IMG/VR virus record: IMGVR_UViG_3300030060_000151
Location: 1 to 20,197 of that record
Length of the DNA stretch: 20,197 nucleotides
From: a virus
Direction: 5' to 3' (one strand)
Shown: piece by piece, positions 6,869 to 19,867 of the stretch
How the letters are laid out: every line of letters starts with the position of its first letter
Position numbering within the stretch: the stretch's first letter is position 1
Program-made: the position numbers and the translations under genes
Notes under the pieces: generated by a model
Seen by the model: the letters and a program-made list of their open reading frames with translations, nothing else
Databases searched by the model: none
What the model was told of the DNA's origin: nothing

Positions 6869-7165
6869 TTACTCCTTCGGATTGTCGTCTTTAACTGATT
6901 TAATATGAAGATACCATTCACCTGTTTTTGCATTATCACCAAATTTACCTGCTGCTATATCTCTATAAAGCATATCAAGTTGTTCTGTTAGTAGGCCATA
7001 AATAGTTTTGGTCTGTGTGTTTGTATCTTCGTTATAAAATCCTGATGTTCTATCTACTTTATATTGTTTATAAAGATTATTATGTGCAGTTTGTACTTGA
7101 TTGTAAGCAGTTTCTTCTGCTTCTGTCATAGTGCTAACTACTCCATCTTTTAATATCTTAGGCAT
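6869..7165 (-). CDS. Fibre-associated small protein, possible assembly factor (98 aa)
   Basis: The frame stays open up to an ATG at 7198. I chose the ATG at 7165 (MPKILKDG) because it forms a TAATG overlap with the stop of the long fibre gene and avoids a 33-bp overlap. The protein is mostly helical and charged. Its C-terminus, LDMLYRDIAAGKFG then EWYLHIKSVKDDNPKE, resembles a tail shown by small phage proteins encoded directly after tail fibres. Wedged between two fibre genes, it could be a fibre chaperone or attachment adaptor; this is inference from position. Confidence 0.6.
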   Translation of the reverse strand: MPKILKDGVVSTMTEAEETAYNQVQTAHNNLYKQYKVDRTSGFYNEDTNTQTKTIYGLLTEQLDMLYRDIAAGKFGDNAKTGEWYLHIKSVKDDNPKE

Positions 7166-9687
7166 TAACTTCTTGCTACTCCATAAACTGTTAAACAAAT
7201 TTTTCTAAAATTCTGTGATGTTGCTATAAGTTGAAATCCATTCATAGAATTACATGCTGTGTCATCTTGATGTAAACTTCCTGTTACAACTTCATGGTAA
7301 TTACTTGAATTTTTATAACCAAGGTGAAAATCCATATAAGGTTTAACTTGCCCTTCTGAATCATTTGAATCAGAATCCCATCTTCCACCTCTGCCATTAG
7401 GAAAGTAAAACCAACCTGTAAGAGGTGCAGCGTCTGCACCATTTGATGCAGCAGAAGTTAAACTAGCTGATGTCGTGTTATTTTCAGATATGTTACGAGC
7501 AGTACCATTACTGTCAATTCCAACTGCCGAAACCCTATATCCAGCACCTGTTACAGCAGCACCATCGTCAAGCCATCTAAAATCTAAATTACCACCATCA
7601 TTGTCAAAAGATATACCATGAATAAATACCCAGTAATTATCATAATCGCTATCAAATCCTGTATAACTATAAGTTGCTACTGATGAACCACCTGAACCAT
7701 AAAAATTTACAGCACTTTCTACAACTAATCCACCACCTCCACCACCACCTGCTTCAGCCCATTTAAGACCTGTAGCTTCTGATGAATCTGCTGTTAATAC
7801 ATGAGTATTTGTGCCAACAGCTAATGCTTGTGGATTGCCACTACCATCACCTACTAATATTTTCCCTTTGGTAGATAGATCAACTGATGTAAGAGCAGAT
7901 GTTCCATTACCAATAATTACTCCATTTGCAGTTAAACTTGTTGCCCCAGTACCTCCACTTCCAACAGCTAGTGTTGCTGATAATCCAGCAGCATTTCCTG
8001 ATGTGTTTTGGTTTCCAGCACTATTAACTCCAGGTAAATCTATATTTCCAGTACCATCGAAAGATACTCCACCAATATTTCTAGCAGTTGCAAGAGCCGT
8101 AGCTGTAGCAGCATTACCTGTGCATGATCCTGATGAACCACTAGCATTACCAGTTAATGCTCCTATAAATCCTGTTGCTGTAATGCTTCCAGTAGATGGA
8201 TTATATGTGCAAGTTCCATCAGATTCTAAACCAATATTTCCACCATCAACATCACCACCTGATGTAAAAATTAAAGCATTATCTTCGTTAGTAGATTCAT
8301 TGTCAGTAATAGTTACTGTTGTGGCTACTGCTGCTGTACCTGATGTATTTTGATTACCAGCAGTATTAACGCCAGGAAGATTAATATTACCTGTGCCATC
8401 AAATGAAACCCCACCAATGTTTCTTGCTGTTTCTAATGCTGTTGCAGTTGCTGCGTTTCCAGTACAACTACCTGAACTCCCTGATGTATTACCTGTTACA
8501 TTTCCTGTTATATTCCCTGAGAATGTTCCTGATAAAACATCTGTATTTGAATTAAATGTTAAACCACTAGCAGACTTAGGTGCTAAATCTCCTGTAGCAG
8601 CAGTTACAAATAAAGGAAAACAAGTTGTATCACTACTTTCATCTGCAACTGTTACGTTTGTAGAGGTTGTTGCTGTAGCTGAGTTACCAGTACAAGAACC
8701 TGAACTACCTGATGCGTTTCCAGTTACATTACCTGTAAGTGGCCCACTAAAACCTGTAGCTGTTAATAATCCACTTGATGAATTAAACGCTAAATTACTT
8801 CCAGTTTTAGGCCCTAAATCTCCAGTTGCTGCTGTAACAAAAAGAGGAAAACAAGTAGTGTCTGTTGATTCATCAGCTACTGTAATATCTGTAGGGGTTG
8901 AAGCTGGTACTGCTGCCCACTTCATTCCAGTTCCTTCACTACTATCAGCAGTTAATACATGATTATTAGAACCTACTGATAAAGCTGATGGATTGCCTGA
9001 ACCATCTCCTATTAATAATTTTCCTTTAGTCGATAAATCTACAGCAGTTACTGCTGAAGTACCATTACCGATTAACACACCATTAGCTGTTAAAGATGAA
9101 GCTCCTGTTCCACCATGAGCTACTCCTATATCTGTAGCTTCCCAAGTTCCTGATGATATAGTTCCTGTTGTAACGATTGAACTAGAACCAGCTACTGGAG
9201 AAAAATAAGTTTTCATGGTGTCCATTCCAACTTTCTTTAAAGTTCCAGCATCTGAATATAGTAATTCATCTGCATCTGCTAAACCTGATGAAATCTCAGT
9301 TTGTCCTGAAATAACATTATCATTTAACATACTGCCTTCTACAGCATCTGCTTGTATAGTTGCAGCACCATTAGTTGCTATAGCTATATCGCCTGATATA
9401 ACTACAGGGTTAAAATTAGTTCCATCGGCTATTAATGCAGCACCACTTGTATTTGTTCCCATAAACAGATCATCGCCTGTTATAGTTAAATCACCACCTA
9501 TAGTTGCATTGCCTGTTGTTGTTAAAGTGCTTGAAGATGTAATACTTGCTGCTGTAACTGCTGGTAAATTTGCTGCTATATTTGTTAAAGTAACTCCAAA
9601 ATTAGAATTATCATATGCTATTGCAAATATAGAAGCACTATTAGGGCTTGTTGTTGTTGTTAAGTCTGAGAATTTTTTAGTTGCCAT
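7165..9687 (-). CDS. Long modular tail fibre protein (840 aa)
   Basis: This is a receptor-binding fibre built from internal repeats. Module A (GGTGASSLTANGVLIGNGTS to VLTADSS) occurs at about residues 191-257 and again at 577-644. Module B (VADESTDTTCFPLFV to SGSSGSCTGN) occurs at about 268-340 and 345-416, with a diverged copy at about 458-531. Module C (ARNIGGVSFDGTGNI to NQNTSG) occurs at about 420-450 and 535-564. A run of seven glycines (647-653) separates this shaft from a non-repeated globular tip (654-840) rich in Tyr, Trp, Asp and Ser, probably the receptor-binding domain. The N-terminus would attach to the tail. The start ATG directly follows the upstream stop (TAAATG). Composition (Gly, Ser, Thr, Ala, Asn) is typical of trimeric beta-structured fibres. 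Confidence 0.85.
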   Translation of the reverse strand: MATKKFSDLTTTTSPNSASIFAIAYDNSNFGVTLTNIAANLPAVTAASITSSSTLTTTGNATIGGDLTITGDDLFMGTNTSGAALIADGTNFNPVVISGDIAIATNGAATIQADAVEGSMLNDNVISGQTEISSGLADADELLYSDAGTLKKVGMDTMKTYFSPVAGSSSIVTTGTISSGTWEATDIGVAHGGTGASSLTANGVLIGNGTSAVTAVDLSTKGKLLIGDGSGNPSALSVGSNNHVLTADSSEGTGMKWAAVPASTPTDITVADESTDTTCFPLFVTAATGDLGPKTGSNLAFNSSSGLLTATGFSGPLTGNVTGNASGSSGSCTGNSATATTSTNVTVADESSDTTCFPLFVTAATGDLAPKSASGLTFNSNTDVLSGTFSGNITGNVTGNTSGSSGSCTGNAATATALETARNIGGVSFDGTGNINLPGVNTAGNQNTSGTAAVATTVTITDNESTNEDNALIFTSGGDVDGGNIGLESDGTCTYNPSTGSITATGFIGALTGNASGSSGSCTGNAATATALATARNIGGVSFDGTGNIDLPGVNSAGNQNTSGNAAGLSATLAVGSGGTGATSLTANGVIIGNGTSALTSVDLSTKGKILVGDGSGNPQALAVGTNTHVLTADSSEATGLKWAEAGGGGGGGLVVESAVNFYGSGGSSVATYSYTGFDSDYDNYWVFIHGISFDNDGGNLDFRWLDDGAAVTGAGYRVSAVGIDSNGTARNISENNTTSASLTSAASNGADAAPLTGWFYFPNGRGGRWDSDSNDSEGQVKPYMDFHLGYKNSSNYHEVVTGSLHQDDTACNSMNGFQLIATSQNFRKICLTVYGVARS
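7753..9123 (-). repeat. Interleaved internal repeats in the long fibre gene (order A-B-B-C-B'-C-A)
   Basis: The fibre shaft is encoded by three kinds of repeated module. Copies of A lie near 8917-9117 and 7756-7959, B near 8668-8886, 8440-8655 and 8095-8316, and C near 8338-8430 and 7996-8085. Copies are nearly identical in protein in places (SGSSGSCTGN three times, NIGGVSFDGTGNI twice) but differ at many third codon positions, so the duplications are not recent. Boundaries are approximate, from hand alignment of the translation. Confidence 0.75.
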
Positions 9688-11604: not shown

Positions 11605-12546
11605 TTATGAAGTAGTTAAATCAGCGATTTTACCACTAGCTGCTTCGTTTTTAGAAACAAGAGTATACTCAACGAGTAATTGTTTCTTCTCAGCATCACC
11701 AGTTTTCGCTAAGTCTTGTACTTGGAAAGGTCTTAAATAAGCTGCTGCCCACATCTCAGTATCTACTACATGAGCTGTTCTGCCTGAACTTCTTAAGATC
11801 CTATCAGCTACTACTCTAACTTCACCGAAGTCTGAAACATAAACATCAATAGTAGCAACTAAGCTTCTATCTTCTGCCATATCCATTCTTGTTGAGTTAC
11901 CAGTAAAGCCTGATACTTTTTGTTTGTTGAATGAACCAACTAACAATAAGTCAGGGTTACCACCTTGGTCATAGCAAAGTTTTAAATTTGCTTTTAAGAG
12001 TGCTTCAGTTAAAACTCTTTGAGTTCCATCTGTAACTGCTCCAGTTGTTCCATGTGTAGAACCACCACTTCCATGAGCTTCGTTAGTATTACACCATGCT
12101 TCGTAACCTCTAAGTCTACGACCTGTGCCTGATGAACCAACAGTTGCGACATTAACGCCTGTTAAGTCAAACTCCATATCACGTTTTAGTTCTTTACCAG
12201 CTTTAGCTATTTGATAAGCCATTTCTGATGTTACACCTGCTTTATTAACAACTTCTTGAGTTCCTGAAACTACAACAGGTTTTGTAGAAATCTGTGTGTA
12301 GTTTAATAGTCTTGAAGTAGCTGTTAATGCTCTGTTTGGAGAATCATCTCCTTCTATTACGACATTTGTAGCTGCTGTTGCAAGAGAATCTGTTTGCCAT
12401 TCATGTTTTGTTGCAGTAGCTGTACCAGTACCGATGCTAGACATAAATGGTGTTTCAGTTGGAGAAATGTTGTAAATAACATTCGCCAAATCTTCTCTTT
12501 TATCATTACTACTAAATGTTTCGTAGGTATTTGTATAAATTGCCAT
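11605..12546 (-). CDS. Major capsid protein, SU10/DUF5309 type (313 aa)
   Basis: I recognise the family from the N-terminal pattern EDLANVIYNISPTETPFMS (about 18-36), then ATKHEWQTDSL, RLLNYTQISTKPVVVSGTQE, GKELKRDMEFDL, and the C-terminal DVYVSDFGEVRVVADRIL and WAAAYLRPFQ. This is the HK97-fold capsid protein family typified by phage SU10 (DUF5309). Length is as expected for that family, and no N-terminal delta-domain extension is visible, consistent with the separate scaffold gene upstream. The ATG is preceded by AAGG 7 nt away. The gene ends 28 nt before a strong terminator. It builds the capsid shell. The SU10 virion is prolate; whether this phage is too cannot be told. Confidence 0.9.
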   Translation of the reverse strand: MAIYTNTYETFSSNDKREDLANVIYNISPTETPFMSSIGTGTATATKHEWQTDSLATAATNVVIEGDDSPNRALTATSRLLNYTQISTKPVVVSGTQEVVNKAGVTSEMAYQIAKAGKELKRDMEFDLTGVNVATVGSSGTGRRLRGYEAWCNTNEAHGSGGSTHGTTGAVTDGTQRVLTEALLKANLKLCYDQGGNPDLLLVGSFNKQKVSGFTGNSTRMDMAEDRSLVATIDVYVSDFGEVRVVADRILRSSGRTAHVVDTEMWAAAYLRPFQVQDLAKTGDAEKKQLLVEYTLVSKNEAASGKIADLTTS

Positions 12547-13611: not shown

Positions 13612-13866
13612 TTATTTACCTCCCTTTCTTTCTTCTTCGAGAATTTTTCCATTCTCCATAGTATTTACAAGAACATTTTGAGCTGTTAATACACCTCTTA
13701 TAGAATGATACAATGCTTCTCTGCCATTTGTATCAACTATTTCTGTTCTTATCCATTTCTGAAATATATCGTTTTGGATAACTTCATAAGATTTTATTAA
13801 TAAAGGATCTTCAAGTAATGCTTTTGCATTTTGTCCTTCCCTTATCTCCTTCTCTTTATCTGTCAT
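13612..13866 (-). CDS. Small conserved phage protein upstream of scaffold (84 aa)
   Basis: This is a helical, charged protein with AKALLEDPLLIKSYEVIQND, then WIRTEIVDTNGREALYHSIRG and VNTMENGK. I recall the same pattern (a short ALLEDPLF helix, W-x-x-T, D-x-x-G-R-E) from small phage proteins encoded near portal and scaffold genes; their function is unknown to me. The start overlaps the upstream HTH gene by 11 bp. The stop TAA is part of the scaffold gene's ribosome-binding region. A structural or packaging accessory role is possible. Confidence 0.65.
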   Translation of the reverse strand: MTDKEKEIREGQNAKALLEDPLLIKSYEVIQNDIFQKWIRTEIVDTNGREALYHSIRGVLTAQNVLVNTMENGKILEEERKGGK

Positions 13867-14059
13867 TTTCTGCTCCTATTTGGTTGATTCTATCCACAAT
13901 ATCTGTGGTTATAGTTTTTCTCCCAGCGAGATACCCTCGAATATCATTATGACTAATAGATGTTTTCAAAGATAACTCATTTACTGAAATTCGATATTTC
14001 AACATTAACTGTTGTAAATCTGTATTAGTAAGTTTTGATTTTTCTCTTAATATAACCAA
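13856..14059 (-). CDS. XRE/Cro-like helix-turn-helix protein (67 aa, TTG start)
   Basis: Almost the whole protein is one HTH domain: LTNTDLQQLMLKYRISVNEL (about 10-29), then SLKTSISHNDIRGYLAGRK with the recognition helix around SHNDIRGYL (37-45), and ITTDIVDRINQI closing the fold. This resembles the compact Cro/CI-like domains of small regulators. TTG at 14059 is taken as the start because it directly follows the upstream stop (TAATTG) and preserves the first helix; the first in-frame ATG (14005) would cut into the domain. The Shine-Dalgarno is weak. It lies inside the late structural run, unusual for a repressor, so it could be a late-operon autoregulator or a DNA-binding virion or packaging accessory. 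Confidence 0.65.
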   Translation of the reverse strand: MVILREKSKLTNTDLQQLMLKYRISVNELSLKTSISHNDIRGYLAGRKTITTDIVDRINQIGAENDR

Positions 14060-14326
14060 TTATCTGTTCTTCTTTCTTCTAAATGTTGAAACATTCGTTG
14101 GTTTTCCACCAACACCTTGTGCTTTTGCTCTTTTACGAGAAACAGCAGATGTTATTTGTGCTTTTGTCATTCTTGCAGCTTTAGATGCAGGAACACATTT
14201 AGGATATGCTCTTCCTGAACCTTTGGCTCTACCACATTTTTGAAACTTACCCTTTTTTTTAGGCGATCCAATGTCAACCCAATTTTCTTTAAACCATTTG
14301 GTAAGACCACCAGTAGATTTAGCCAC
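14060..14326 (-). CDS. Small basic Cys-containing phage protein (88 aa)
   Basis: This is a very Lys/Arg-rich protein with FKENWVDIGSPKKKGKFQKC, CGRAKGSGRAYPKCVPASKA, MTKAQITSAVSRKRAKAQG and the tail GGKPTNVSTFRRKKNR. The W-V-D-I and C-G-R / Y-P-K-C-V-P-A elements form a pattern I recall from small proteins of marine phages and cyanophages, of unknown role. Two cysteines (about 32 and 44) could bind metal or form a disulfide. The start is GTG with a very strong GGGGGAGG 8 nt upstream. It overlaps the preceding small gene by 8 bp. Nucleic-acid binding is plausible from charge alone. Confidence 0.7.
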   Translation of the reverse strand: MAKSTGGLTKWFKENWVDIGSPKKKGKFQKCGRAKGSGRAYPKCVPASKAARMTKAQITSAVSRKRAKAQGVGGKPTNVSTFRRKKNR

Positions 14327-14474
14327 GTCTATAACCTCCCCCTCTTTTTTTATATTCTCTTACAAGCCAAGCATTAGCATAAGCTGAAGGATAAACTTTA
14401 AATTTTTTCTTAGCTGCTGATTTTACTCTTGAATATAAAGCAGGGTTAGTAGGTATATTACGACTTTTTGCCAT
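14319..14474 (-). CDS. Tiny basic protein, YPSAYANAW type (51 aa)
   Basis: Translated by hand: it starts MAKSRNIPTNPALYSRVKSA, continues with KKKFKVYPSAYANAWLVREY and ends KKRGGGYRRG. The element VYPSAYANAWLVREYKKRGG is one I recall from small phage and marine viral proteins, which supports a real gene despite its size. It is strongly basic, with aromatic residues regularly spaced. The frame overlaps the upstream 41-residue gene by 17 bp and the downstream 88-residue gene by 8 bp, as in the rest of this cassette. The Shine-Dalgarno (AAGAGAT) is weak. The function is unknown. Confidence 0.65.
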   Translation of the reverse strand: MAKSRNIPTNPALYSRVKSAAKKKFKVYPSAYANAWLVREYKKRGGGYRRG

Positions 14475-14583
14475 TCATTCTATCTCTTTTAAAAATGCCT
14501 CTACCAATTAAAATATCTTTTTTGGTAACTTTTCCATCTTTATTTAAATCAGGAAATCTTTTTTTTGTTTTAATTTTTTTCAT
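14458..14583 (-). CDS. Tiny basic protein with EF-hand/dockerin-like loop (41 aa)
   Basis: Translated by hand: MKKIKTKKRF, then PDLNKDGKVTKKDILIGRGI and a basic tail. The segment D-L-N-K-D-G-K-V-T-K-K-D matches the spacing of a 12-residue EF-hand/dockerin-type calcium loop (ligands at loop positions 1, 3, 5, 7 and 12; Gly at 6). I recall similar FPDLNKDGKVTKxDILIGRG proteins in marine phages. The ATG overlaps the preceding stop as ATGA, with AAGGT about 7 nt upstream. Whether calcium is bound is unknown, since the other half of a paired EF-hand is missing. Confidence 0.65.
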   Translation of the reverse strand: MKKIKTKKRFPDLNKDGKVTKKDILIGRGIFKRDRMNGKKS

Positions 14584-14726
14584 TTTCCGACCTTTTTCAT
14601 TGCTAGTTTATGTGCTTGTGTAAAGGTTTTACCTTTATTCATCTCTTTACGCATAAAAGTCATATGTTTCGCACTATGATGTTTTTTATGTTTTGCAAGA
14701 GTTGCTTTTTGTAGTTTAGTTAACAT
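14580..14726 (-). CDS. Tiny basic His/Lys-rich protein (48 aa)
   Basis: Translated by hand: MLTKLQKATLAKHKKHHSAK, HMTFMRKEMNKGKTFTQAHK, LAMKKVGK. The stretch HHSAKHMTFMRKEMNKGKTF with TQAHKLAMKKVGK is a pattern I recall from many unrelated phage genomes, so this is very likely expressed. Lys and His make up a large share of the residues, and two short amphipathic helices are likely. It is linked by ATGA to the 41-residue gene downstream and overlaps the 17-residue ORF upstream by 7 bp. Nucleic-acid binding or condensation is a guess from composition. Confidence 0.65.
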   Translation of the reverse strand: MLTKLQKATLAKHKKHHSAKHMTFMRKEMNKGKTFTQAHKLAMKKVGK

Positions 14727-14773
14727 TTGCCTTTTTTCTTCTTTTTTCCTTTTTTCATTGGTTTGCCATACAT
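14720..14773 (-). CDS. Putative 17-residue Lys-rich microprotein
   Basis: The ORF MYGKPMKKGKKKKKGKC has one of the best ribosome-binding sites in the cassette (AGGAG, 7 nt before the ATG). It fills the gap between the XhlA-like gene and the 48-residue gene and overlaps the latter by 7 bp. The alternative is a leader whose translation couples ribosomes into the next gene, which has a poor site of its own. At this size coding status cannot be settled from sequence alone. Confidence 0.45.
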   Translation of the reverse strand: MYGKPMKKGKKKKKGKC

Positions 14774-14783
14774 AATATTTCTC

Positions 14784-15008
14784 CTATAAAAGTTTTAGTA
14801 TTTCTGTAAATTTATCACTCATCAAAACAAAGACCACAATAGCTCCATATATAATATATTGAGCTTTAAAGATTGCTCTTTTAACATCTCTAACATCACA
14901 TTTAAGAACATCAATATCTCTTTGCATATGAGCAAGATGATTGTTTTTAATTAAATCAATGTCTTTTTTGAGTAATTCTATTTCTGTTTTAATGTCCTTT
15001 TCGTTCAT
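14784..15008 (-). CDS. XhlA-like coiled-coil membrane protein, possible holin component (74 aa)
   Basis: Residues 4-45 form a heptad-like coiled coil (EIELLKKDIDLI, MQRDIDVLKCDVRDVKRAIF). A single hydrophobic span follows (about 50-64, QYIIYGAIVVFVLM) and a short C-terminus ends in FTEILKLL. This layout is that of the haemolysin XhlA family of phage membrane proteins, often encoded in lysis cassettes. The N-terminal coiled coil would lie in the cytoplasm. The start overlaps the upstream stop as ATGA, with AGAGGTT 10 nt upstream. No endolysin is seen nearby, so a holin role is tentative. Confidence 0.65.
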   Translation of the reverse strand: MNEKDIKTEIELLKKDIDLIKNNHLAHMQRDIDVLKCDVRDVKRAIFKAQYIIYGAIVVFVLMSDKFTEILKLL

Positions 15009-15163
15009 GCTAGTGGCAACCTCTTTCTTTTAGGGTACATATTAACTGCTATTGCTACTGCTTGTTTTTGTGGTTTGCCCTCTTTTTTTAATACTTTAAT
15101 TTTTTTAGAAATTAATTTATTTCTCTCAATATTTCCATATCCTGAGTATTTAGGGTATGCCAT
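15005..15163 (-). CDS. Tiny basic protein, EGKPQKQAVAIA type (52 aa)
   Basis: Translated by hand: MAYPKYSGYGNIERNKLISK, KIKVLKKEGKPQKQAVAIAV, then NMYPKRKRLPLA. The helix-turn element LKKEGKPQKQAVAIA recurs in many small proteins of marine phages, where I recall it next to portal or capsid genes; its role is unknown. The ATG overlaps the portal stop as TAATG, and its own stop overlaps the next ATG as ATGA, so it is coupled on both sides. Charge suggests nucleic-acid contact. Confidence 0.7.
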   Translation of the reverse strand: MAYPKYSGYGNIERNKLISKKIKVLKKEGKPQKQAVAIAVNMYPKRKRLPLA

Positions 15164-17208
15164 TAGCTTGGGCCTATTCCAACAGGTCTATTTTGCACAG
15201 CTTCTAGTGCAAGTTCTTGTTCGTTTAAGTCAAGTTGTGATTTTTTAATCTGTAATTCTTGTTGCTTAAGAGCAAGATTGACTGCTGCTTCTTCTTGTTT
15301 TAATTTAAGTTCTTGTGCTTTAAGTTCAGTATCTATTTGTAACTCTTGAGCTTGTAATTGTAATTTTTGTAATTCTACTTGAGCTTTTTGTTGTGCTACC
15401 TTTTCATCTAATGTAGGTTCAGGTGGTGGTTGAGGTGGCATCATAGCTGGATTAGATATAAACTGATCTGAGTTTTTATATCCTGATTGAGCTATAAATT
15501 CACTTACTGCATTATATATATTTTGTGGTGTAACGATTGACCCCATTCCACCATTTTGTATTAAACCTTGTATTATCTGCATAATAGAACCCATAGTTTG
15601 AGTCTTGCTTTGTTGCGAACCTGACCCAATACCTACATTAACAGTACAATTTAGTTTTTCTTTCCAACGAGATACATCTATAGGTACAAATTTTCCGTTA
15701 AGATAAGCTATTTTTTGTCTATCTTCGTATCTTTGTACCAGCGAATAAATGTTTCTAAATAAATCTTTAATGCCTGTTTCTGCAAATATACGAGCAATCA
15801 ACTCAATTCTTTGCATAGCAGACTCAGTTGCTGCTGAAATTGCACCTGAAGTTACATGAGATGTTAATACATCAGGATTAAGACCTTGTGTCATTTTAGA
15901 TACACCTGATCTTTCTTCTCTAATGCCATCTAGGTATTGTACCATTTGGAACGCATAAGATTGTATTTGTGGTGTAGGTAGTGCTGTAACAGCACCTGGT
16001 GCTCTCATTCTTACAATCCCACCTGGTTTAGATGAAAGTAAATCATCTAATTCTACTTGACCTGCTAAAACTGCATATCTAGCATTGTTAGTTAAATACA
16101 TATTATCGAGAAGATTTCTCATAATAGTTGATTTAATAAGCTGTATATCTTGAACTGTATCGGCAATGCTCATGCCATGAAACTTATGTGGTATTGGTAA
16201 TGGACAAATAGTTGAAAATGGAATTGAATCTATTTCCTCATTATCCAATATTATACTGCCACCTTTAGTAATTTTTCTAAGTTCTGCTATACCATCGTTA
16301 TCGTAATCAATATACATATAACATTCTTCTAACCAAACTTTTCTTGATGGCCCTTCTCCTTCTTCTCCTGGAGATGAATCATCATCGTAGCTAAATCTTG
16401 TTATTCTTTCCTCATTAAACTCTGCGTTATTTTGTGTATAACTTGGTAGTTCATCAACTAAAGACTTTGGGTATCCTTCTAAAATTAAATCAGATACCGA
16501 TTTTTTTACTCGATGGCACACAAAACTAGCATCTTCAACAGAAGTAGCCCTTCTTGATACTAAAAATTCTTCAGGTGGTACAGATAAAACTCTTACCTGC
16601 CCATCGGTTTTAGTTTTCTTAACTTTAACATCGTGTTCAACAATAGCTGGAGATATCAAAGTGCCAAAATCATCGACTTGTTGTTTTTGTATTACAATCT
16701 CAGTATGTTCTATGACTTCCATATCATCATTAGCAAGAATAGATTGGTATTCAATTTCAGTTAAGTTAGTGTAATTTTCTGTAGATACTTCTGTTTTTTC
16801 TTCCCAAAAATGCTTAATAACACCTGTTTTAGATATTAACGCATCTTTGAAGGCATCATATAGGACTTTAAAGCCGTTATTTTGTTTGTTAAAGACATAA
16901 TTAACATAGTCAGTAGCTTGTTGTGCCATTTGCACATCTTCAGGGCCTTGTGGCTCAAATTCAGCTACATTGTTGTGCGTGGTAAAAATACGCATTAATG
17001 ATGGCATAATATATTCTATTGTATCCCTAACATCAGTAGTAACGATCTCAGACCTACCCTCTATTTCATTACCAAACTTCTCGCCAAGATAATACTTCAT
17101 AGCATTTTCTCTTTGTTCTGAAAGCTCAGTATTAAAATTACCTGAGGCAGACTCTATTTCATTGCTTAGTTTTGATGCTAATTCATCATCGGTCATCTTT
17201 TTAGCCAT
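15163..17208 (-). CDS. Portal protein (681 aa)
   Basis: This is a large portal of the P22/podovirus type. The N-terminus has RENAMKYYLGEKFGNEIEGR and SEIVTTDVRDTIEYIMPSLM (about 29-76), which I recognise from portals. FKDALISKTGVIKHFWEE follows at about 119-136, then LSVPPEEFLVSRRATSVEDA. The stem and crown region includes SIADTVQDIQLIKSTIMRNL and HVTSGAISAATESAMQRIEL. The C-terminal 80 residues are a Gln/Lys/Leu/Glu coiled coil ending in NRPVGIGPS, perhaps a barrel-like helical extension into the capsid. It forms the dodecameric DNA gateway and binds the terminase. TAAATG joins it to the upstream gene. Confidence 0.9.
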   Translation of the reverse strand: MAKKMTDDELASKLSNEIESASGNFNTELSEQRENAMKYYLGEKFGNEIEGRSEIVTTDVRDTIEYIMPSLMRIFTTHNNVAEFEPQGPEDVQMAQQATDYVNYVFNKQNNGFKVLYDAFKDALISKTGVIKHFWEEKTEVSTENYTNLTEIEYQSILANDDMEVIEHTEIVIQKQQVDDFGTLISPAIVEHDVKVKKTKTDGQVRVLSVPPEEFLVSRRATSVEDASFVCHRVKKSVSDLILEGYPKSLVDELPSYTQNNAEFNEERITRFSYDDDSSPGEEGEGPSRKVWLEECYMYIDYDNDGIAELRKITKGGSIILDNEEIDSIPFSTICPLPIPHKFHGMSIADTVQDIQLIKSTIMRNLLDNMYLTNNARYAVLAGQVELDDLLSSKPGGIVRMRAPGAVTALPTPQIQSYAFQMVQYLDGIREERSGVSKMTQGLNPDVLTSHVTSGAISAATESAMQRIELIARIFAETGIKDLFRNIYSLVQRYEDRQKIAYLNGKFVPIDVSRWKEKLNCTVNVGIGSGSQQSKTQTMGSIMQIIQGLIQNGGMGSIVTPQNIYNAVSEFIAQSGYKNSDQFISNPAMMPPQPPPEPTLDEKVAQQKAQVELQKLQLQAQELQIDTELKAQELKLKQEEAAVNLALKQQELQIKKSQLDLNEQELALEAVQNRPVGIGPS

Positions 17209-17579: not shown

Positions 17580-19025
17580 CTATACGACAGCTACATCAGG
17601 GCCTAATCTGCCCTTATTGTTCCATCGTGATCCTTTAGTTGTTGAATGTCTAAGACTCATGGCAGCATATCTTGTAGCCGACATTAAGTCATCTTTAAGT
17701 TTAATTAATTTTCCATCTTTACGATGATACATACGATACTCCTCAAACCAACTGTAAAGAGTATTAAATACTTTAAATCTACCACTTTCCATTCTGTCTA
17801 GCATTTCCATAAGACCTGCTTCCACTGAATTGCCACCTTTTTTCTCACCAATCGCTGGTGGGTTTTCAAAGTGGAAAGGCAGCATATTAACGTAATTATC
17901 ACGATATTGTTCGGCTAATGTTACACCTGAACCTTTATCGTGTTGGTAGCCATCGTGTGGCCAGACTATAGGAATATAGTCGCTACCTTCCCTTTCATTA
18001 ATATGTGATGCGTGATAGCTTGGGATTTGTTTACTCATCTTGTAACAATCGTAGACATAAACAATATCCTTATCTCTATCCCAGGCTAACCAAACTACGG
18101 CTGTAGGGTGGTCGTATCCAAAATCAAGACCTGCAATCCTTGAAAAATGTGGGGGTATGGTGAACGGATCACAGGCTAAGTTATCTTCATCAATAGGAAA
18201 GACTAATCCACTTCCTATCATGGGTATGCCCTTTGACCTCATATCACGCTCATGTTGAGGTAGGGCAGCTAAAATCTGTTGTTTCATATCCTCGGTTAGA
18301 TGTTCTGCATCTTCCCACCCTGCTGTAACTAGGGCTTGTCCTGGTCTTAAATCTGAGGTGAAGTTTTGTACTACTTCAGTCATACCTGACTCAGGGGTAA
18401 AAGTCAGGTAGACTTGTCCTCTTTTGTCGAGGGTACGAGTAATACATTGTGAATAGATATCTTGAGGTGGTTCTTCATCTAGCCATATAATATCTAAACT
18501 CTCCCCCATAAATTTTTCAGCCCCCATTTCATAGGCTTTAAAGGCAACCCTAGACCACCCACCTGTTCTATGTTTTACAAGCACCGAAGAATGTGCATTT
18601 GGCACACCTGGTTTTCTTGTTGTTTCACCTATAAGATGTTTAGGAATACTCCCTTTCCCTCTATCTCTTGGGTTGTCAGGTTGCCCAAATAATTCTTTTT
18701 GGCATATATCTCGTGTGGTTTCATTACTAGCTCCACACACCCATGCTCTAATAGGTTTATCGTATTTCTTCCCCTTCCACCATTTAGGGTATAATCCAGT
18801 CAAATGAGCTGCCATTTCCATAGCACCCACATAAGACTTACCCACCCTGTTAGCTGCCATCAAAAGCCTCTGAGAGGACTCTATACCTGCTTTATGAAAC
18901 CTTTTTTGAAAGTCGTAGGGTTGGTAGTAGTTTAACCTATTTTCCTCTTGTCGTTTATTAAGAGTTTTTAAAATCTCTTGGATTCTTTCGTTGTTTTGCA
19001 TATTTGTTCTAACTGAAGATAACAT
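17580..19025 (-). CDS. terL: Terminase large subunit (481 aa)
   Basis: This is the DNA-packaging ATPase/nuclease. The Walker A motif is AANRVGKS (57-64) and Walker B is LDIIWLDEE (177-185), with a coupling motif TFTPESG (about 208-214). The RNase H-like nuclease half has acidic residues D301 and D305 (IAGLDFGYDHPTAVVWLAWD), WPHDG at 356-360 and a final acidic site in DDLMSATRYA (445-453). All key residues are present, so it should be active. Length is normal for the family. The start is uncertain: ATG 19025 gives 481 residues, ATG 19001 (MQNNERI) gives 473, and neither has a good Shine-Dalgarno. Either overlaps the end of the HNH gene, implying coupling. Confidence 0.92.
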   Translation of the reverse strand: MLSSVRTNMQNNERIQEILKTLNKRQEENRLNYYQPYDFQKRFHKAGIESSQRLLMAANRVGKSYVGAMEMAAHLTGLYPKWWKGKKYDKPIRAWVCGASNETTRDICQKELFGQPDNPRDRGKGSIPKHLIGETTRKPGVPNAHSSVLVKHRTGGWSRVAFKAYEMGAEKFMGESLDIIWLDEEPPQDIYSQCITRTLDKRGQVYLTFTPESGMTEVVQNFTSDLRPGQALVTAGWEDAEHLTEDMKQQILAALPQHERDMRSKGIPMIGSGLVFPIDEDNLACDPFTIPPHFSRIAGLDFGYDHPTAVVWLAWDRDKDIVYVYDCYKMSKQIPSYHASHINEREGSDYIPIVWPHDGYQHDKGSGVTLAEQYRDNYVNMLPFHFENPPAIGEKKGGNSVEAGLMEMLDRMESGRFKVFNTLYSWFEEYRMYHRKDGKLIKLKDDLMSATRYAAMSLRHSTTKGSRWNNKGRLGPDVAVV

Positions 19026-19852
19026 TGTAAATATTGATTATTTTGAGGTATTTCTTTTGCCAAGGGTATAAGTTTTTCTTGCAATATTTTTATCTTATCT
19101 TCCCTGGCTGATATGGGTCTTAATATATTGTTTATATCTTTGCTTATCTCCCACACATCTCCCCAACCTGTTGTCCTGTTTTTCAATATTCCTCTAAGAT
19201 AACCAGATAGGCTCACAACCCCTTGTTTTTTATTTTTAATAGATTTTTTTAAATTATTTTCTATATTAGTTATAAACAAATCTGCATTATATTTAGCTTC
19301 TTCTTTTTTTGTAATATTCTTGTGTAAAAATTCAACATAAGAAAATTCTGTATCTTCAATTACCTCAACGAATTCTTGCATATCTAGTTTTTTATATAGG
19401 TTTAAGAATTTGTTTACCATAGGGTCGGCTACAGTAAACTTAAAACCTGTGTTTATTTCGATCATATGATTAATATAATCTATCAAGGGTTTAATTTCTT
19501 CTGTTTTATCTAATCTGCTTTTTAGATACGCTTGGAGCTGCTCTCTTTTTTCATCTGTTTCTTTAAGTTCTTTTTCTTTTAAAGAAATGTAATTTTTATC
19601 TGTAATTTTTCTCTTACCTTTGCCGATATTGCATTGTTTGCAAGAAGTAATAAGATTTTCAAAGCTATTATCGCCACCCTCGTAAACAGGCACAATATGA
19701 TCTACTTCCAAAACAACTCCCTCATCTCTTGGGGTAGCACCACAATATTGACATTTATGGTTATCTCTTTTAAATACCTCAAACCTTATTTTTGGGGATA
19801 TCGATTTTCTTTTCCCAACCAATTTAAGTTTGCTCTCTTTGTTTTTACACAT
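18968..19852 (-). CDS. HNH endonuclease with long C-terminal extension (294 aa)
   Basis: The N-terminal third is an HNH nuclease: FEVFKRDNHKCQYCGATPRD with zinc ligands C34/C37, catalytic DH at 51-52 (VLEVDHIVPVYEGGDNS), N66 in ENLI, and CKQCNIGKGKRK with C71/C74. About 210 further residues are Lys/Glu-rich and helical (KELKETDEKREQLQAYLKSR; LKKSIKNKKQGVVSLSGYLR) and match nothing I know. ATG at 19852 is chosen over the in-frame TTG at 19867 because GGAG lies just before it. HNH proteins beside terminases can take part in packaging-linked DNA cleavage; a homing-type endonuclease is the alternative. The 3' end overlaps terL. Confidence 0.85.
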   Translation of the reverse strand: MCKNKESKLKLVGKRKSISPKIRFEVFKRDNHKCQYCGATPRDEGVVLEVDHIVPVYEGGDNSFENLITSCKQCNIGKGKRKITDKNYISLKEKELKETDEKREQLQAYLKSRLDKTEEIKPLIDYINHMIEINTGFKFTVADPMVNKFLNLYKKLDMQEFVEVIEDTEFSYVEFLHKNITKKEEAKYNADLFITNIENNLKKSIKNKKQGVVSLSGYLRGILKNRTTGWGDVWEISKDINNILRPISAREDKIKILQEKLIPLAKEIPQNNQYLQCYLQLEQICKTTKESKRF

Positions 19853-19867
19853 AATACTCCACCTCAA

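What the first reader, a model, noticed from the sequence alone, without database searches (positions are those of the whole stretch)
13612..15163. Cassette of coupled Lys/Arg-rich microproteins between portal and scaffold
Between portal and scaffold I find nine small ORFs (52, 74, 17, 48, 41, 51, 88, 67 and 84 residues), joined by short gaps or overlaps of 4-17 bp. Five (14060-14726 and 15005-15163, with the 17-mer) are extremely basic, and four of these carry motifs I recall from other marine phages (EGKPQKQAVAIA, HHSAKHMTFMRKEM, FPDLNKDGKVTKKD, YPSAYANAW). Proteins this short are often missed by gene callers. Recurrence next to portal/capsid genes suggests a conserved set, perhaps packaged with DNA, condensing it, or altering the host nucleoid. 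The function is inference; the ORFs and junctions are seen.
Basis: partly seen in the sequence, partly recalled or inferred. Interest (0 to 1): 0.75.

Follow-up and report, generated by a model that had tools for sequence, protein, structure and literature searches.

The report
Swappable cassette of basic phage-head microproteins
Between two virus-shell genes of a marine phage sits a real block of nine tiny genes; its interchangeable, strongly positively charged middle contains a two-gene pair that elsewhere is fused into one giant-virus or phage-head protein, which suggests these unstudied peptides ride inside the virus head with its DNA.

Summary
All nine ORFs lie where stated (minus strand, portal to scaffold). 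In 80 portal relatives none of the small families carries an in-frame stop, and all but the HTH gene o8 are under clear purifying selection (pooled dN/dS 0.06-0.30; o8 0.56). The block is a mosaic: o1, o2, o8 and o9 are near-fixed, while the basic middle (o4-o7) is swapped repeatedly. Two ORFs, o6 (YPSAYANAW, 51 aa) and o7 (88 aa), are the two halves of Pfam DUF5872, a family also found in giant viruses. They are a near-obligate pair in viral contigs (77 of 80 and 76 of 79 loci). They also occur fused: to each other, to head-maturation proteases, and with DUF6321 in a T4-like cyanophage protein tagged 'virion protein' in a record whose paper reports virion mass spectrometry. A T7-like Prochlorococcus phage carries o6, o4, o7 and DUF6321 as neighbouring small genes between scaffold and capsid. 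The best reading is a kit of head-interior, probably DNA-contacting, minor virion proteins. Location is supported by homology and fusion only; DNA binding and condensation are inferred. No solved structure resembles o6 or o7, and I found no paper on their function.

The parts
15163..17208 (-). portal protein (SU10/LUZ24 type), upstream boundary
   Evidence: Pfam SU10_portal 1.7e-221, phrog_1216
15005..15163 (-). o1, 52 aa, basic (EGKPQKQAVAIA), phrog_2423; near-fixed in the lineage
   Evidence: phrog_2423 4.8e-7; 78 copies among relatives and window, no in-frame stop; dN/dS 0.19
14784..15008 (-). o2, 74 aa, coiled-coil-like region plus C-terminal hydrophobic segment, near neutral; near-fixed
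   Evidence: dN/dS 0.23
14720..14773 (-). o3, 17-aa Lys-rich peptide MYGKPMKKGKKKKKGKC with TAGGAGA RBS; slot taken in 12 relatives by a 24-26-aa AT-hook-like peptide (KKRGRPP)
   Evidence: dN/dS 0.24
14580..14726 (-). o4, 48 aa basic (HHSAKHMTFMRKEM), phrog_31838; never found with family fB in a complete cassette
   Evidence: phrog_31838 9e-11; dN/dS 0.16; 16 vs 12 cassettes, no overlap, p=3.7e-5
14458..14583 (-). o5, 41 aa basic with dockerin/EF-hand-like loop DLNKDGKVTKKD
   Evidence: Dockerin_1 E 0.0013, below cutoff; dN/dS 0.28
14319..14474 (-). o6, 51 aa basic, N-terminal half of DUF5872; predicted strand-helix-helix-strand
   Evidence: PF19197 7.6e-10, profile 1-38, above cutoff; AF2 pLDDT 88; dN/dS 0.08
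14060..14326 (-). o7, 88 aa basic, C-terminal half of DUF5872, GTG start preceded by GGGGGAGG
   Evidence: PF19197 4.5e-4, profile 51-103; phrog_23735 1.2e-28; dN/dS 0.21
13856..14059 (-). o8, 67 aa, Cro/C1-type HTH, TTG start uncertain, not basic
   Evidence: HTH_60 5.6e-5, HTH_26 2.8e-4, just below cutoffs; dN/dS 0.56
13612..13866 (-). o9, 84 aa, near neutral; a small gene fills the same portal-scaffold position in LUZ24 (gp64) and HTVC106P (gp64)
   Evidence: phrog_8161 2.2e-7; o9 profile matches in 2 isolate-phage loci
12581..13609 (-). head scaffolding protein, downstream boundary
   Evidence: phrog_3927 7.7e-62
11605..12546 (-). major head protein
   Evidence: phrog_1328 3e-103

Best explanation
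The region is a genuine block of nine small genes in the head operon. Its ends (o1, o2, o8, o9) are lineage-fixed. Its middle is an interchangeable set of basic microproteins drawn from a pool shared by marine podo- and myophages and, for DUF5872, giant viruses. The core is the o6-o7 pair, which probably acts as one two-part protein (split DUF5872). SHOWN: real genes under purifying selection; o6/o7 linkage; o6/o7 fused to each other, to head-maturation proteases and, with DUF6321, into a cyanophage protein tagged 'virion protein'; recurrence between scaffold and capsid genes in a T7-like phage. INFERRED: they are made late, enter the prohead with portal and scaffold, and remain inside the head as minor proteins. 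INFERRED more weakly: their positive charge contacts the packaged DNA, neutralising or organising it near the capsid wall or portal, and/or they leave with the DNA at infection. Different members fill the same job, hence the swapping.
For: No in-frame stop in any copy of any family in 80 relatives; pooled dN/dS 0.06-0.30 for every small family except o8, vs portal 0.10 and scaffold 0.28. DUF5872 split between o6 and o7. Linkage 77/80 and 76/79 in IMG/VR, o6 upstream in all 77 of the first set, and the pair in isolates HTVC027P, HTVC203P, HTVC106P, DSL-LC04, C72C1. Mosaic: minimum changes on the portal tree 10 (o4), 11 (fB), 10 (fC), 7 (o7) versus 1 for o1 and o2. o4 and fB never co-occur, p=3.7e-5. 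P-SCSP2 carries o6, o4, o7 and DUF6321 between scaffold and MCP. Fusions: L175 head-maturation protease (phrog_9427 4.7e-49) + DUF6321 (1.3e-29) + DUF5872 (1.4e-11); L207 Peptidase_S78_2 (4.1e-10) + DUF5872 (6e-14). Cyanophage SSCSM1_29 = o7-like + o6-like + DUF6321, tagged 'virion protein'; I count 48 such tags against 45 MS-detected proteins in PMC9602691. S-CREM2 gp137 ends in DUF6321 and is in that phage's virion proteome (PMC10665884 Table 3). Structure search with the o6 model independently finds CeV-01B DUF5872 and the S-SCSM1 virion protein, both weakly.
Against: No microprotein of this kind has been shown in a virion; the proteomic evidence concerns larger fused homologues, and the S-SCSM1 link rests on GenBank tags. 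S-SZBM1_192 (DUF6321) and the neighbouring S-SZBM1_194 are absent from that phage's 30 MS-detected proteins (PMC9146016). In HTVC106P and HTVC203P the pair lies far from the portal, so capsid-gene adjacency is not universal. Only 7 of 34 non-redundant cassettes carry o6/o7, so they are dispensable in this lineage. DNA binding was not tested. Part of the charge follows from A-rich codons.
Confidence: 0.5

Rival explanations
1. They are transient assembly or packaging factors: basic adaptors acting with portal, scaffold, head protease or terminase during head building and DNA packaging, not kept in the finished virion.
For: Position between portal and scaffold; terminase large subunit is the commonest annotated near neighbour of o6/o7 in other contigs; in T4-like cyanophages the fused protein lies between or beside the terminase subunit genes; fusion to head-maturation proteases, which are often lost on maturation (general knowledge).
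Against: The fused homologue in S-SCSM1 and the DUF6321 protein in S-CREM2 are recorded in purified virions.
Confidence: 0.25
2. They are host-takeover or anti-defence proteins (nucleoid binding, nuclease inhibition) that sit in the head operon only to be packaged or made late.
For: High charge; rapid gain and loss as expected of accessory genes; AT-hook-like peptide in the o3 slot of relatives; fusion with a Zeta_toxin domain in L207.
Against: o6/o7 are slow-evolving (dN/dS 0.08 and 0.21), are shared with giant viruses of eukaryotes, and are fused to head proteases.
Confidence: 0.15
3. Most are marginal or selfish ORFs without a defined role, carried along in a recombination hotspot.
For: Strong presence/absence variation between close relatives.
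Against: No frame disruption, low dN/dS, and independent recurrence and fusion across phage groups.
Confidence: 0.03

Closest known systems
DUF5872 (Pfam PF19197), unknown function, giant viruses and phages
   Same: o6 matches profile 1-38 and o7 matches 51-103; natural o6-o7 fusions L129/L137 span 8-109; the o6 model weakly matches CeV-01B DUF5872 by fold
   Different: Two overlapping genes here, one polypeptide there; reverse order (o7 then o6) in the larger fused phage proteins
T4-like cyanophage DUF6321 proteins beside the terminase genes (T4-GC_119; SSCSM1_29, Bellamy 123, SBM3_00185)
   Same: Contain o7-like and o6-like segments plus DUF6321
   Different: Single 340-620-aa multidomain proteins; the window has no DUF6321 gene in the cassette
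Internal head proteins of phages (T4 IPI-IPIII, Alt) (from general knowledge)
   Same: Small, basic, variable between relatives
   Different: No sequence relation known; no capsid-targeting or prohead-protease cleavage signal was tested here
Viral DNA-condensing cationic proteins (baculovirus P6.9, ascovirus P64; PMC6163548)
   Same: Strongly cationic proteins encoded by large DNA viruses
   Different: No homology shown; DNA condensation demonstrated there, not here

Membership tests
DUF5872 (PF19197) | Profile match above the curated cutoff (27.5 bits) | tested here: met
   o6 39.8 bits, profile 1-38
DUF5872 (PF19197) | C-terminal half present and above cutoff | tested here: inconclusive
   o7 21.2 bits, below 27.5, profile 51-103; P-SCSP2 homologue 53.3 bits; fused L129 29.0 bits over 8-109
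DUF5872 (PF19197) | Both halves on one polypeptide | tested here: not met
   Separate overlapping ORFs in the window and separate genes in the 14 relatives that carry them
DUF6321 (PF19846) cyanophage virion-type protein | DUF6321 domain | tested here: not met
   No match among the window ORFs scanned; the domain is in partner genes of other phages
Internal/ejected head proteins | Present inside purified virions | not testable with these tools
   Only homologues: SSCSM1_29 tag, S-CREM2 gp137
Internal/ejected head proteins | Prohead-protease cleavage or capsid-targeting signal | not tested
   No processing site sought
Viral DNA-condensing proteins | Binds and condenses DNA | not testable with these tools
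   Only net charge computed
AT-hook proteins | R-G-R-P core flanked by K/R | tested here: not met
   Absent from the window 17-mer; KKRGRPP in relatives, e.g. L066, L075
Dockerin/EF-hand | Profile match above cutoff | tested here: not met
   o5 Dockerin_1 19.3 bits vs 22.9, E 0.0013
XRE/Cro-type HTH | Profile match above cutoff | tested here: inconclusive
   o8 HTH_60 23.9 vs 24.1 bits, HTH_26 21.5 vs 22

The most novel reading that the evidence does not exclude
DUF5872 halves, DUF6321 and their companions are a head-loading module: short domains that carry themselves, or cargo fused to them (head protease, DUF192, zeta-toxin kinase), into the head and onto the DNA, used as separate genes in small marine phages, as fusions in large ones, and shared with giant viruses of algae.
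Probability: 0.15. Interest if true: 0.85.

Novelty: new variant of a known kind. Interest (0 to 1): 0.6.

Why it matters
These are widespread genes of ocean phages (two IMG/VR scans each hit the 600-stretch limit) with no assigned function, and DUF5872 is shared between phages and giant viruses. The gene-fission and fusion evidence turns a set of 'hypothetical' peptides into a specific, testable claim: a two-part head-interior protein. It also names a likely reason they are missed: Lys-rich proteins of under 90 aa are easily skipped by gene callers (in DSL-LC04 the o7 homologue lies unannotated) and would give few usable tryptic peptides.

Tried and rejected
Solved-structure searches by sequence (o6, o7: none) and by fold (o7 model pLDDT 68, o6 model pLDDT 88: no PDB match with E at or below 0.001) gave nothing. 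An internal duplication (o6 and o7 alike, suggested when MAFFT laid o6 on the second half of o7) was rejected by profile comparison (probability 0.5%). tblastn with o1 found no isolate phage and with o4 one partial match. Literature: DUF6321 no paper, DUF5872 one gene-table mention. No RNA family in the window and no promoter excess in the cassette. My o5 profile did not detect the EF-hand-like P-SCSP2_20, so I claim only resemblance there. Treating the whole cassette as one conserved unit was rejected. The o3/fE exclusivity is not used as evidence because my script kept only the better-scoring of the two.

Full report
OBSERVATION. The window is a 20,197-bp virus record, 34.5% G+C, with a podovirus-like head module on the minus strand: HNH endonuclease, terminase, portal of SU10/LUZ24 type, scaffold, major head protein. 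Eight ORFs of 40 aa or more on one strand of 1.55 kb exceed all 500 Markov simulations (mean 1.3, maximum 5). Five plus the 17-mer are basic (+0.23 to +0.53 net charge per residue; all other window genes tested at most +0.15). The A-rich strand explains part of that charge.

CONSERVATION. Eighty portal relatives (80-100% identity) were fetched. None of the copies of the cassette families has an in-frame stop. Pooled Nei-Gojobori dN/dS is 0.19 (o1), 0.23 (o2), 0.24 (o3), 0.16 (o4), 0.28 (o5), 0.08 (o6), 0.06 (variant o6v), 0.21 (o7), 0.20 (o9), against 0.10 for portal and 0.28 for scaffold; replacement families range 0.14-0.30; o8 is the exception at 0.56.

MOSAIC. In complete cassettes (about 840-1765 bp) o1, o2, o8 and o9 are nearly always present; the middle varies. 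Alternatives include fB (AKGTKHYFKTGKEFKG...), fC (NINKRKKAGTSRSKK...), fG, and a 24-26-aa AT-hook-like peptide KKRGRPP in the o3 slot. Minimum changes on the portal tree are 10 for o4, 11 for fB, 10 for fC, 7 for o7, but 1 for o1 and o2. In 34 non-redundant cassettes o4 and fB never occur together (16 vs 12, p=3.7e-5) and o6 and o7 always do (7 of 7, p=1.9e-7). LUZ24 and the nearest isolate by portal, pelagiphage HTVC106P (40%), have just one small gene in this position, so the basic genes look like an expansion between portal and o9.

THE PAIR. o6 matches DUF5872 profile positions 1-38 (E 7.6e-10, above cutoff) and o7 positions 51-103 (E 4.5e-4, below cutoff). The same pair is adjacent in isolates HTVC027P, HTVC203P, HTVC106P, DSL-LC04 and C72C1; CRP-2 has an o6 gene followed by a partial o7 match. 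In P-SCSP2, a T7-like Prochlorococcus phage, the genes between scaffold and major capsid protein are o6 (profile E 6e-17), an EF-hand-like 41-mer, o4 (1e-19), o7 (5e-7; Pfam DUF5872 5e-14) and DUF6321 (Pfam 3.9e-24). This is independent recurrence of the same kit in an unrelated head module.

FUSIONS. L129 and L137 are o6-o7 fusions of about 140 aa. Twelve further loci carry o7 then o6 inside larger proteins. L175 joins a head-maturation protease (phrog_9427 4.7e-49), DUF6321 (1.3e-29) and DUF5872 (1.4e-11). L207 joins an XkdF-type protease (4.1e-10), DUF5872 (6e-14) and a Zeta_toxin domain (2.6e-13). T4-like cyanophage proteins, in several phages beside or between the terminase genes, contain an o7-like segment and a C-terminal DUF6321, and several also an o6-like segment. 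The o6-like segment scores modestly there (E 1e-4 to 3e-3, above all 2000 shuffled decoys). SSCSM1_29 is such a protein and carries the product name 'virion protein'; I count 48 CDS with that tag, close to the 45 MS-detected virion proteins reported (PMC9602691), and the tagged set includes the unusual ones the paper names, such as NMNAT. S-CREM2 gp137 ends in DUF6321 and is in Table 3 of PMC10665884 with 4 unique peptides. Against this, S-SZBM1_192 (DUF6321) is not among 30 detected proteins (PMC9146016).

STRUCTURE. The o6 model is confident (pLDDT 88; strand-helix-helix-strand). No PDB match is significant. Among viral models the best are phage proteins, with weak matches to the DUF5872 protein of Chrysochromulina ericina virus and to the S-SCSM1 virion protein, in agreement with the sequence evidence. 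o7 is predicted poorly (pLDDT 68).

NEIGHBOURS AND HOSTS. Among 110 nearest larger neighbours of o6/o7 in IMG/VR, the annotated matches are most often terminase large subunits, with portal, scaffold and other head genes also present; 12 neighbours themselves match the o6 family, and 13 carry an o6-like domain with my own profiles. In GTDB genome contigs there are only 24 matches, mostly short contigs of marine single-cell genomes and MAGs, several from Pelagibacteraceae; this fits phage contigs carried in those assemblies and gives no sign of a chromosomal gene.

INTERPRETATION. Shown: real, selected genes; a swappable middle; a near-obligate two-gene unit equal to a split DUF5872; fusion of that unit to head-assembly and virion-tagged proteins. 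Inferred: the microproteins are minor head-interior proteins. More weakly inferred: they touch and organise DNA. I put 0.5 on head-interior minor proteins, 0.25 on transient packaging or assembly factors, 0.15 on host-directed roles. The remaining uncertainty is experimental.

Noticed in passing
relatives L066, L075 and others, slot of window 14720-14773: The 17-mer is replaced by a 24-26-aa peptide with an AT-hook-like core (KKRGRPPMKKKKK), among the shortest recurring genes seen.
   Followed up: partly
L207:2375-5299: One 975-aa phage protein joins an XkdF-type head protease, DUF5872 and a Zeta_toxin domain, suggesting a toxin-like kinase built with the head.
   Followed up: partly
window 14784-15008: o2 has a coiled-coil-like N-terminus and a single C-terminal hydrophobic segment; a holin- or spanin-like role is possible.
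   Followed up: no
window 13856-14059: o8, a small Cro-type HTH gene with a TTG start inside the head operon, is near-fixed but fast-evolving (dN/dS 0.56).
   Followed up: partly
window 18968-19867: HNH endonuclease gene whose end overlaps the start of the terminase large subunit gene.
   Followed up: no
window 7165-9687: 840-aa protein with long internal near-repeats (ARNIGGVSFDGTGNI, GNASGSSGSCTGNAATAT), probably a tail fibre.
   Followed up: no
L258:41626-41835 (S-SCSM1 SSCSM1_93): A 69-aa basic protein (SKAQQRFMGMVHAVKKG) is also tagged virion protein; a similar segment starts S-SZBM1_194.
   Followed up: no
L085:3986-4249 (phage DSL-LC04): Intact o7 homologue left unannotated in the GenBank record, between annotated small genes.
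   Followed up: yes
L089:3005-3244 and L084:1832-2116: Another small basic family (KSFRARH...YWSCKKW) recurs near o6/o7 and weakly matches phrog_220, minor head protein and DNA pilot.
   Followed up: partly
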